From the NCBI GenBank assembly GCA_028278525.1, contig JANQEE010000039.1, positions 124,001-188,000 on the forward strand: DNA of 64,000 nucleotides, given 5' to 3'. The position numbers and the translations under genes were made by a program. Below the pieces are notes generated by a model. The model had not been told where the DNA came from and did not search any database. It worked only from the letters and a program-made list of their open reading frames with translations. This document shows positions 27,899 to 30,894 of this stretch, one piece after another. Numbering within the stretch: the first letter of the stretch is position 1; each line of letters begins with the position of its first letter. This stretch comes from Minwuiaceae bacterium. GTDB lineage: Bacteria > Pseudomonadota > Alphaproteobacteria > Minwuiales > Minwuiaceae.

Positions 27899-29302
27899 TC
27901 AGGCGGAAGCGGAACGCGCCGCTGGGGCGCAAGGGACGGCGCGGGTTTCGGCCGCGTCCTCGATGGCCTGCACCCGGGTGGCGGGGAGAATCAGGGTTAC
28001 GGTCGTGCCCTTGCCAACGGTGCTTTCCAGCACCAGCCGGCCGCTATGCAGTTCCGCGATCTTGCGGGTCAGCGGCAAGCCAAGGCCGGTCCCGCCGCGA
28101 CGCCGCGAAATGGCGCTTTCGACCTGCTCGAACGGTTTCTGAACGCGCTCCAGGTCCGCGCCCGACATCCCGATGCCGTCGTCCGCCACGACGACGATCA
28201 CATCGCCGTTCGCGTCGACGGCGGAACGTACGATCGCGTGCCCGCCGGCGGGCGTGAACTTGACGGCATTGGAAAGCAGGTTCATCAGCATCTGCTTGAA
28301 CAGGCGCTCGTCGGCCCGCAACAGAACGCCCGCGGCATCGTGCTGCACCACCAGGGAGACGCCGGCTTCTTCGGCCATCGGCCGGATCAGGCGAAGCGAA
28401 TCCTCCACGACGACGCCGACCCGAACACTCGCTTCCTGCAGGTCCAGCTTGCCTGCTTCGATCTTCGAAATGTCCAGGATGTCGCTGATGATGTTCAACA
28501 GATGGGTACCGCTATGTTCGATATCCCGGCTGTATGCACGGTATTGTTCGTTGCCGACAGCCCCCAGCACCTCGTTGCCGATCATCTGGGAGAACCCGAT
28601 GATGGCGTTGAGCGGCGTGCGAAGCTCGTGGCTCATGGTGGCCAGGAATTCGGATTTGGCCCGATTGGCCATTTCCGCCTCTTCCTTGGCGCGCCACAAC
28701 CGGTCGAGGCTCCTCTGATACAAGTCGACATAGGACAGCGCCATCGCTGTCGTGTACGCGGCGGCGCACATGACCGAAATGAAGGTGACCACCGGCACGC
28801 CATTGATCGGCAGGTGCTGGGGAAACGAAAAGTCCGTGAAGTAAAGCACCGCCATCAGCGCACAGCCGCCGCCCAGCACCGATAGCCCGATCTTGCGGCG
28901 CCAGCCGTCGAGAAAGAAGACGCAGACGATCGGCGCTGCGATTACCCAGGGCAGCGCCGGCGATATCGCGCCGCCATAGTTGAAAGCGATGAAAAAGATC
29001 AGCAGCGTAAATTGCAGAATGGACGTGAGTTCCAGCAGCGACAGTGCGCCCGTCCAGCGCAGCAGGAATGGATGCACGGCGAGTACGAACACGCCGGCCA
29101 TCGAGATCCACGCGGCCGCCACCGGGTTCCCGTACAACAGGTACCCGGTGATCACCAGGCCGAGCGGCGGGCCGACCAAATGACTGATCACAAATGTCCG
29201 CGTGCGTAAGTTCGCTTCTTCGGTTGCACGCAACCGAGCCGGGATGAACCAGTCGAGAACGCTATGGAATCGACCGGCAGCTCCCCCCAGACCTGCCAAC
29301 AT
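27899..29302 (-). CDS. Membrane sensor histidine kinase, candidate receptor beside the autoinducer synthase
   Basis: A 467-residue kinase. Residues about 35-195 form six hydrophobic segments with short loops and no periplasmic domain; a coiled linker ([23 protein letters not shown]) leads to the H-box [17 protein letters not shown] (His225) and an ATPase with [21 protein letters not shown] and GTGLGLPL. There is no receiver domain. The six-helix sensor plus kinase layout is like CqsS/LqsS, receptors for alpha-hydroxyketone signals, and the gene is divergent to a CqsA-type synthase. However, similar multi-helix sensors occur in unrelated alphaproteobacterial kinases, so receptor identity is inference. 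Confidence 0.9.
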
Positions 29303-29667
29303 GTCCTGGATCTCGTCGGTTATGCTGAGCTAGCTGATTATCGATTCTACGTATAAAACCTACCTTATAGTTAACAAAATAAAACATTGCCGGTGTGTAG
29401 TAGAGATCACACTGATGGCCGGCTGCCCTACACCGCCACGCAGCAGCCGAACGCATCGAATTGAGTAAACCACTACAGACTAACAGTCGCTTAGAAGTAG
29501 TCAATTAATTCTATACACAAATGGTAATCCTGAAGGGTTCTCGTGGCTTTGTTTTCATTATACTCTGATGCGGGGGCTTAACTCTTAGCATTAGTTGGGT
29601 CAATTGCGTTCAATTGAAAGTTGTGGTCAATCGCCCGGCGTTAAGAGGTGTGTTTTGGGGATCAGGG
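29303..29667. promoter_or_regulatory. AT-rich divergent regulatory region between histidine kinase and cqsA
   Basis: This 365-base gap is clearly richer in A+T than the rest of the window. It carries the kinase promoter, a GTGTG-N10-CACAC stem nested in a GC-rich arm (about 29390-29435), a possible -10 TATACT at 29559-29564 for cqsA with no good -35, and several TCAATT motifs: 29501-29506, 29600-29606, 29610-29616 and the shorter TCAAT at 29627-29631. The two copies at 29600 and 29610 are ten bases apart, one helical turn, as expected for cooperative protein binding. No gene was seen inside. Confidence 0.5.
29350..29377 (-). promoter_or_regulatory. Candidate promoter of the membrane histidine kinase
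   Basis: On the minus strand TTGTTA (29377-29372) and TATACG (29355-29350) are separated by 16 bases, a reasonable sigma-70 arrangement. Transcription would begin about 40 bases before ATG 29302. The region is AT-rich compared with all flanking genes. Confidence 0.4.
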
Positions 29668-30894
29668 ATGGCCACCGGCAAGGAAGCGACAACAGGACGG
29701 CATGCAGACAAGTATCTAACCGAGGAAATGCCGCGCCTGTATGCGCGGATGGATCGGTATTTCGCCGAATACGGCAAAGGGCACGTCACATTCGGCAAGG
29801 CACCCGGACCGAATGACGTACACATGGCGACCAACGACTATCTGTCGTTGGCCCAGGACGAACGGATTATCGACAGTCAGATTAGGGCTTTGCAGGATGA
29901 CAAGTCCGACATCTACATGTCCGGTGTGTATGTCCAATATCTCGACATTCAGCGGGATTTCGAACGAAAAATGGCCGCCTACCTCGACAGTGGCGACGCG
30001 GTGCTGTGCCAGTCGGGTTTCGCCGCCAACGAAGGGCTCATCCAGGCAATTGCCGACCCCGAAACCCCGGTTTATCTGGACCTCTATGCGCATGCGTCCC
30101 TGTGGCAGGGCGCACTGGTCGCTCGGGCGCCGGCCCATGCGTTTCGGCATAACAACGCGGGTCACCTGCGGAAGCTGATCGCACGGCACGGCCCCGGCGT
30201 GGTTGCCGTGGACGCGGTCTACAGCACGACCGGCGAATTGTGCAAACTGCTCGACATACTGGAGGTTTGTGAAGAAACCGGGTGCCTGCTGGTGGTGGAC
30301 GAGTCCCACACCGTCGGCGTCCTGGGCGACGACGGGGCCGGATTGGTCAAGAGCCTCGGTCTCTGCGACAGGGTACCGTTCCGCGTCCTGAGCCTGTCGA
30401 AAGCGTTCGTCGGGCGCGCCGGCGTGATTGCCGCGCAGCCGAACTTCACTGAATATTTCCGTTACACCTCGTGGCCGGCGATTTTCAGTTCGGCGGTGAT
30501 GCCGTGGGAAATCGCGCGGTTTTCCAAGACTCTCGACATCATCCAACAGGAGGGATGGCGCCGGGAGCGGCTTTGGCAGGCATCGGCGTTCCTCCGTGAC
30601 GGGCTCGAGGATGCCGGCTACAACCTGGGCGGCAGCGAAACCCAGATCATTTCCCTGGTCGCCGGGCCGGAGCGCAATACGGCGGCACTGCGCGACGCGC
30701 TGGAAGAACGCGGCGTATTCGGCGCCGTGTTTTGCGCGCCGGCGACAGCGAAGAACAAATCGCTGGTCCGGCTCTGCGTCAATCAGGGACTAAGCCAGGA
30801 CAATCTGGAGCAGGTGCTGGATGTCTGCCGGGAGATCCGCGGCGTTCTGGATATCGCCAAATGGCCGGCCGGCAAGCGGCGAGCCGCAGGTTAG
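29668..30894 (+). CDS. cqsA: CqsA/LqsA-type alpha-hydroxyketone autoinducer synthase
   Basis: A 408-residue PLP enzyme of the alpha-oxoamine synthase fold (KBL/BioF/ALAS type I). Diagnostic stretches match Vibrio CqsA closely: AHAFRHNNAGHLRKLIARHG, VVAVDAVYSTTGELCKL, LLVVDESHTVGVLGDDGAG, and GVFGAVFCAPATAKNKSLVR. The PLP Lys is in LSLSKAFVGRAG (about residue 245). CqsA condenses an acyl-CoA with SAM or an amino acid to make CAI-1-type ketones, which diffuse out as signals. ATG 29668 fits the N-terminus of known enzymes; TTG 29614 is an alternative. Confusion with BioF is unlikely: there is no biotin context and the HNN/PATSKNK-type motifs are CqsA-specific as far as I recall. Confidence 0.88.
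   Translation: MATGKEATTGRHADKYLTEEMPRLYARMDRYFAEYGKGHVTFGKAPGPNDVHMATNDYLSLAQDERIIDSQIRALQDDKSDIYMSGVYVQYLDIQRDFERKMAAYLDSGDAVLCQSGFAANEGLIQAIADPETPVYLDLYAHASLWQGALVARAPAHAFRHNNAGHLRKLIARHGPGVVAVDAVYSTTGELCKLLDILEVCEETGCLLVVDESHTVGVLGDDGAGLVKSLGLCDRVPFRVLSLSKAFVGRAGVIAAQPNFTEYFRYTSWPAIFSSAVMPWEIARFSKTLDIIQQEGWRRERLWQASAFLRDGLEDAGYNLGGSETQIISLVAGPERNTAALRDALEERGVFGAVFCAPATAKNKSLVRLCVNQGLSQDNLEQVLDVCREIRGVLDIAKWPAGKRRAAG

What the first reader, a model, noticed from the sequence alone, without database searches (positions are those of the whole stretch)
27899..30894. CqsA-type autoinducer synthase divergent to a membrane histidine kinase
The gene at 29668 carries CqsA-specific stretches (FRHNNAGHLRKLIARHG, FGAVFCAPATAKNKSLVR), not just the general alpha-oxoamine synthase fold. 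Beside it lies a six-helix sensor kinase in the arrangement used by CqsA/CqsS and LqsA/LqsS. Alpha-hydroxyketone signalling is best known in Vibrio and Legionella; a two-gene module in a Rhodospirillales-like bacterium may be a little-described quorum-sensing system.
Basis: partly seen in the sequence, partly recalled or inferred. Interest (0 to 1): 0.78.

Follow-up and report, generated by a model that had tools for sequence, protein, structure and literature searches.

The report
CqsA-type signal synthase with replacement sensor
This bacterium carries a true relative of the cholera-type quorum-sensing signal synthase CqsA, paired head-to-head with a membrane sensor kinase whose sensing part is unrelated in sequence to the known receptor CqsS; the pair recurs in distant alphaproteobacteria, some of which have no CqsS at all, so it looks like a rewired version of this signalling system.

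Summary
The synthase (29668-30894, +) is a CqsA/LqsA-family enzyme: above the NCBIfam cut-off, best solved relative V. cholerae CqsA, and separated from BioF, KBL and HemA with full support. The kinase (27899-29302, -) has six predicted membrane helices and an intact kinase core. It is not a CqsS/LqsS homologue: its sensor matches no Pfam family, shows no profile similarity to CqsS sensors, and its core is PdhS/DivJ-like. The gene order is also not the Vibrio/Legionella one, which is tail-to-tail; here it is head-to-head. The pair is nevertheless conserved: the same divergent arrangement occurs in six other genomes (one with a broken synthase), five unrelated contexts in all, where only these two genes are shared. 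In 385 alphaproteobacteria, close relatives of the sensor occur only in CqsA-positive genomes. Four genomes whose only CqsA is this one have no CqsS sensor anywhere. The window's genome also holds a second, canonical cqsA-RR-cqsS cluster. Best reading: an alpha-hydroxyketone-type circuit with a replacement receptor. Ligand and output are inferred. New variant of a known kind.

The parts
29668..30894 (+). cqsA-type alpha-oxoamine synthase (alpha-hydroxyketone-type autoinducer synthase), 408 aa
   Evidence: NF005526 501.9 bits vs cut-off 428; phmmer to V. cholerae CqsA 3hqt E 2.3e-92; tree; Schiff-base lysine K245 in SLSKAF and H214 in DESH aligned with V. cholerae K236 and H205
27899..29302 (-). 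membrane sensor histidine kinase, 467 aa, divergent to the synthase; no receiver domain
   Evidence: HisKA 1.5e-19 and HATPase_c 1.4e-25; phospho-acceptor H225, N-box N345, G1 D374/G376/G378 and G2 glycines invariant among five orthologues
28703..29302 (-). N-terminal six-helix sensor domain (residues 1-200), 'LDWFIP ... SHxxGPPxG ... YGGxxSPAL.W ... PIVxxFF' family, no Pfam match
   Evidence: no Pfam family over it in any member; six membrane segments; alignment; no profile similarity to CqsS sensors; found with CqsA
27899..28702 (-). PdhS/DivJ-like histidine kinase core plus short tail
   Evidence: NCBIfam best stretches PdhS 236.6 bits and DivJ 206.3 bits, both below the whole-protein cut-offs; as close to other kinases of the same genome (49-55%) as to the orthologues' cores (49-54%)
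29303..29667 (.). shared divergent intergenic region, 45% GC, presumed to hold both promoters
   Evidence: no motif shared with the intergenic regions of the other loci was found

Best explanation
The locus encodes a synthase-receptor pair for an alpha-hydroxyketone-type (CAI-1/LAI-1-like) signal in which the classical CqsS receptor is replaced by another six-helix sensor kinase. Proposed steps: (1) P0001 condenses a medium-chain acyl-CoA with an amino-acid-derived substrate on PLP to make an amino- or hydroxy-ketone signal (family and catalytic residues shown; product inferred). (2) The hydrophobic signal crosses or partitions into membranes and binds the six-helix domain of the divergent kinase (inferred from conserved pairing, from co-occurrence, and from the lack of any CqsS in genomes that have only this pair). 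(3) Binding shifts kinase/phosphatase balance at H225 (catalytic residues shown; effect inferred). (4) Because no response regulator lies nearby and the core is PdhS/DivJ-like, the phosphate most likely goes to a regulator encoded elsewhere, with DivK and PleD (both present on contig C17) as the leading candidates (inferred, weaker). In this genome a second, canonical cqsA-RR-cqsS cluster runs alongside.
For: Synthase family. Conserved pair: divergent cqsA and same-sensor kinase in L068, L069 (Oceanibacterium hippocampi), L070, L081, L174 and, with a broken cqsA, L210. Five contexts share no neighbour except these two genes; L081/L174 and L070/L210 are each one context. Co-occurrence: strong sensor hits (E<1e-40) in 5 of 8 CqsA-positive and 0 of 377 CqsA-negative alphaproteobacteria; Fisher p 8e-10 by genome, 1e-6 by genus. 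Complementary distribution: G194, G364, O. hippocampi G748 and G749 have one CqsA each, the new kinase, and no CqsS sensor by a profile that finds it in Vibrio, Paraburkholderia, Tistrella and G000. No close relative of the sensor (only one weak hit, E 1e-7) was found among the sampled proteobacteria outside the class. The conserved element is the sensor: the kinase core is no closer to the orthologues' cores than to unrelated kinases of the genome. DivK-PleD operon.
Against: No ligand binding, product or phenotype is shown. Gene pairing could reflect regulation of cqsA by the kinase instead of signal reception. Distant relatives of the sensor (25-33% identity) occur in genomes without CqsA, so the domain family at large is not CqsA-specific. 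Tistrella has a closely related CqsA with no such kinase. The pairing rests on seven genomes, several of them MAGs. The assignment to DivK/PleD rests on core similarity only.
Confidence: 0.62

Rival explanations
1. The kinase is not the receptor: it senses something else and its regulator controls transcription of cqsA from the shared intergenic region, while the signal is read by CqsS (where present) or by an unknown protein.
For: Divergent pairs often are regulator-target pairs (general knowledge). In G000 and G009 a CqsS-type kinase exists that could read both signals.
Against: Four genomes with this pair have no CqsS-type sensor. The conserved part is a six-helix membrane sensor like those that read hydrophobic ketones, and it is the sensor, not the core, that tracks CqsA.
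Confidence: 0.22
2. The sensor is a CqsS sensor that has diverged beyond sequence detection, so the system is an ordinary CqsA/CqsS pair.
For: Both have six membrane segments with similar spacing, a short fourth helix and a long signalling helix from the sixth.
Against: Profile-profile probability 0.1-2%, no better than against an unrelated six-helix sensor or reversed controls. CqsS motifs such as FPQPYENL and PFFF are absent. The two domains coexist as separate families in G000, G009 and G751. The structure model of the kinase is of low confidence (mean pLDDT 68).
Confidence: 0.18
3. The enzyme makes a ketone that is not a signal (an antibiotic, a lipid precursor), and the kinase pairing is incidental.
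For: Pocket changes relative to V. cholerae CqsA (F79Y, F257Y, V32T) allow a different product.
Against: It scores above the equivalog cut-off for the signal synthase, and its nearest relatives recur beside a sensor kinase in five contexts.
Confidence: 0.08

Closest known systems
CqsA/CqsS of Vibrio
   Same: CqsA-family synthase (43% identity to V. cholerae CqsA) beside a six-helix membrane histidine kinase
   Different: Head-to-head instead of tail-to-tail; sensor not detectably homologous; kinase 467 aa without the receiver domain of the ~680-aa CqsS
LqsA-LqsR-LqsS of Legionella and JqsA-JqsS-JqsR of Janthinobacterium (PMC3376566, PMC3566124)
   Same: Synthase plus non-hybrid membrane kinase
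   Different: No LqsR-type regulator; other sensor and other phospho-acceptor class. The window genome's second copy (L006) does have this kind of cluster
PdhS/DivJ/PleC kinases of alphaproteobacteria
   Same: Kinase core (NCBIfam PdhS 236.6 and DivJ 206.3 bits over residues 192-446)
   Different: A six-helix sensor paired with a signal synthase; curated whole-protein cut-offs are not met

Membership tests
CqsA/LqsA alpha-hydroxyketone autoinducer synthase (NF005526) | Score above the curated equivalog cut-off | tested here: met
   501.9 vs 428 bits; BioF 234, KBL 200 and HemA 134 bits are far below theirs
CqsA/LqsA alpha-hydroxyketone autoinducer synthase (NF005526) | Placement with CqsA, apart from BioF, KBL and HemA | tested here: met
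   Branch support 100/100; inside an alphaproteobacterial CqsA clade 99/99. LqsA of Legionella itself was not identified among the rows
CqsA/LqsA alpha-hydroxyketone autoinducer synthase (NF005526) | Catalytic lysine and acyl-tail pocket of CqsA (pocket list from PMC3285556) | tested here: met
   K245 present; 6 of 9 pocket residues identical, F79Y and F257Y aromatic, V32T; E. coli BioF keeps 2 of 9
CqsA/LqsA alpha-hydroxyketone autoinducer synthase (NF005526) | Makes an amino- or hydroxy-ketone signal | not testable with these tools
   Needs mass spectrometry or a reporter
CqsS/LqsS receptor kinase | Six membrane helices before the kinase core | tested here: met
   hydropathy; low-confidence model
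CqsS/LqsS receptor kinase | Homologous sensor domain (FPQPYENL, PFFF motifs) | tested here: not met
   hhalign probability 0.1-2% with shallow and deep profiles
CqsS/LqsS receptor kinase | Tail-to-tail with cqsA, or cqsA-lqsR-lqsS order | tested here: not met
   68 of 79 named CqsA loci have a CqsS-type kinase nearby and none of those has this sensor; here divergent
CqsS/LqsS receptor kinase | Own receiver domain or LqsR-type partner | tested here: not met
   No receiver domain; neighbours are isocitrate/isopropylmalate dehydrogenase and SMP-30
CqsS/LqsS receptor kinase | Responds to an alpha-hydroxyketone | not testable with these tools
   Needs a binding or phosphorylation assay
PdhS/DivJ/PleC kinase | PdhS-type HisKA and HATPase core | tested here: inconclusive
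   Best NCBIfam stretches are PdhS and DivJ, but below whole-protein cut-offs; many kinases of the genome share this core
PdhS/DivJ/PleC kinase | Phosphotransfer with DivK/PleD | not testable with these tools
   A DivK-like and a PleD gene (656 vs 474 bits) are adjacent in the genome

The most novel reading that the evidence does not exclude
The LDWFIP-type six-helix domain is a second, independently evolved class of receptor for CqsA-made ketone signals, and it plugs quorum sensing directly into the PdhS-DivK-PleD/CtrA cell-cycle and c-di-GMP network of alphaproteobacteria.
Probability: 0.3. Interest if true: 0.86.

Novelty: new variant of a known kind. Interest (0 to 1): 0.68.

Why it matters
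Alpha-hydroxyketone signalling is described in the held literature for Vibrionaceae, Legionella, Burkholderiaceae, Oxalobacteraceae and Chlorobiaceae (PMC5289986), always with CqsS/LqsS-type receptors. A recurrent alphaproteobacterial pair without CqsS would show that the same synthase can be served by unrelated receptors, and would offer a natural test of how six-helix membrane domains read hydrophobic ketones. A culturable organism with exactly one synthase and one such kinase (Oceanibacterium hippocampi) makes the question directly testable.

Tried and rejected
BioF, KBL or HemA identity of the synthase: rejected by scores and tree. Kinase as a CqsS/LqsS orthologue: rejected by profile comparison. 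A shared regulatory motif, including CtrA-type TTAA-N7-TTAA, in the intergenic regions: few hits, no consistent pattern, none in the window. Rfam: no RNA family in the window. Structure search with the kinase model (mean pLDDT 68): only kinase-core matches among the rows shown, nothing on the sensor. The other kinase type seen beside cqsA (type B: L083, L090, L177) was tested as a contrast: its sensor family is widespread at 21-32% identity and much less tied to CqsA (34 of 385 genomes, p 0.003). Laying the whole genome in the Python box was not available. Paper searches for CqsA in Rhodospirillales found nothing; only open-access PMC text is held.

Full report
OBSERVATION. The two genes are present as stated. 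The synthase runs from ATG 29668 to 30894 on the + strand (408 aa) and the kinase from 29302 down to 27899 (467 aa), with 365 bases between the start codons. No RNA family matches the window.

SYNTHASE. NCBIfam NF005526, 'alpha-hydroxyketone-type quorum-sensing autoinducer synthase', is matched with 501.9 bits (cut-off 428), while bioF (234), glycine C-acetyltransferase (200) and 5-aminolevulinate synthase (134) stay far below theirs. The best solved relatives are V. cholerae CqsA entries, E about 2e-92. In a 55-row tree all CqsA proteins are separated from E. coli BioF, E. coli KBL, HemA and two further oxoamine synthases of the same genome with support 100/100, and P0001 sits in an alphaproteobacterial CqsA clade (99/99). 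The lysine that binds PLP aligns (K245). Of nine residues reported to line the decanoyl pocket of V. cholerae CqsA (H30, V32, F79, F257, I263, F264, C346, P348, A349; PMC3285556), six are identical; F79 and F257 are tyrosines and V32 is threonine; BioF keeps two. The exact acyl chain therefore cannot be predicted.

KINASE. Six membrane segments are predicted by hydropathy, followed by HisKA and HATPase_c; there is no receiver domain. The catalytic residues are intact. The sensor region has no Pfam match in any member. Profile comparison of this sensor family with CqsS/LqsS sensors gives probabilities of 0.1-2%, no better than reversed or unrelated six-helix controls, with shallow and deep (32 vs 81 sequences) profiles. 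The two predicted models show a similar order of helices, so very distant kinship cannot be excluded, but the model of the kinase is of low confidence (mean pLDDT 68). The core resembles PdhS/DivJ. It is as similar to unrelated kinases of the same genome (49-55%) as to the cores of the orthologous kinases (49-54%), whereas the sensor is 41-47% identical in the orthologues and was found only once in the genome. The sensor is thus the part that travels with cqsA.

NEIGHBOURHOOD. One scan of 84,980 species genomes gave 79 named CqsA loci. In 68 of them a CqsS/LqsS-type kinase lies close by, typically as cqsA> <RR <kinase, and none of those has the window's sensor. The window's sensor type is divergent to cqsA in the four loci L068 (Sneathiellales MAG), L069 (Oceanibacterium hippocampi), L070 and L081, which with Tistrella hold the synthases closest to P0001; also in G364 (L174) and in G751, where the adjacent cqsA is broken while the kinase is open. 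With the window this makes seven genomes and five contexts (L081/L174 share a context, as do L070/L210). Between contexts the shared genes are essentially only the synthase and the kinase (the remaining hits are generic kinase-core matches, one weak hit, and one 68% match of non-adjacent genes between L069 and L174).

CO-OCCURRENCE. In 385 alphaproteobacterial genomes, 8 have a CqsA above cut-off. The sensor gives strong hits (43-46% identity, E<1e-40) in five genomes, all CqsA-positive; weaker hits (25-31%) occur in nine CqsA-negative ones. Fisher p is 8e-10 by genome and 1e-6 by genus, not corrected for phylogeny. Outside the class only one weak hit was found in 398 proteobacteria although 16 others of that sample have CqsA.

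COMPLEMENTARITY. A profile of CqsS sensors finds one in G000 (beside the second CqsA), G009 (likewise), Tistrella, G751, G752 and the Vibrio and Paraburkholderia controls, but none in G194, G364, O. hippocampi (G748) and G749. These four have one CqsA each, and it is the one divergent to the new kinase. There the new kinase is the only candidate receptor recognised by either profile. G287 also lacks a CqsS hit but has two other CqsA copies and only a hybrid relative and a more distant relative of the kinase, so the picture is not perfectly clean.

THE SECOND COPY. G000 carries a second CqsA on contig C15 (48% identity, 527.7 bits) with the canonical order cqsA> <response regulator <CqsS-type kinase <LuxR-type gene with an autoinducer-binding domain (locus L006). 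This is the genome's ordinary Lqs-type cluster; the window's locus is the unusual one.

MECHANISM. Shown: family, intact catalysis on both proteins, conserved pairing, complementary distribution. Inferred: ketone product, binding to the six-helix domain, control of phosphorylation. More speculative: output through DivK and PleD, which lie adjacent on contig C17 (PleD 656 bits, cut-off 474; the DivK-like protein is named from its sequence and its place beside pleD, no NCBIfam model of its own was hit). No response regulator is encoded next to the pair.

STATUS. The synthase is a member of a known family. The kinase fails the defining sequence tests of CqsS/LqsS and should not be filed there, although it probably works like one. 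Papers held here list alpha-hydroxyketone systems in gamma- and betaproteobacteria and Chlorobiaceae (PMC5289986, PMC3376566, PMC3566124); no description in alphaproteobacteria was found, within open-access text only. Verdict: new variant of a known kind; interest 0.68.

Noticed in passing
L076:7649-11224, L083:6439-10026, L090:7631-11224: A second CqsA domain is fused to the C-terminus of an MMPL/HAE3-type RND transporter (1191-1197 aa, one open frame), directly downstream of a free-standing cqsA, in three MAG assemblies. How LAI-1 leaves the cell was open until recently (PMC10692735, which shows vesicles), so a synthase-exporter fusion suggests dedicated export.
   Followed up: partly
L006:9141-13737 (G000 contig C15): Second CqsA of the same genome in a canonical cqsA / response regulator / CqsS-type kinase cluster, followed by a LuxR-type regulator with an autoinducer-binding domain; possible link between ketone and acyl-homoserine-lactone sensing.
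   Followed up: partly
L175:2604-5775 and L176:6756-10015: Hybrid kinases with the same six-helix sensor (904-923 aa; in L175 PAS, HisKA, HATPase, REC, Hpt) followed by a CheY-like single receiver gene, unlinked to cqsA but in CqsA-positive genomes.
   Followed up: partly
L083:3729-5159, L090:4899-6296, L177:7876-9258: A third, different six-helix sensor on a PdhS-like core also lies directly beside cqsA (type B); its sensor family is widespread in alphaproteobacteria.
   Followed up: partly
L210:4271-5363 (G751): The cqsA beside the kinase is broken (part missing and frame changed) while the kinase is open; the genome keeps two other CqsA copies. Could be an assembly fault in this MAG.
   Followed up: partly
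L081:7704-8024, L210:2003-2317, L070 kinase C-terminus: A small domain of unknown function (about 100 aa) follows the kinase as a separate gene in two loci and is fused to its C-terminus in L070.
   Followed up: no
L071 (Tistrella mobilis pTM3) and L211: A closely related CqsA on a 1.1-Mb plasmid has no kinase of the CqsS or window type within 10 kb; a CqsS-type sensor (315-aa frame) and a type-B kinase lie about 35 kb away.
   Followed up: partly
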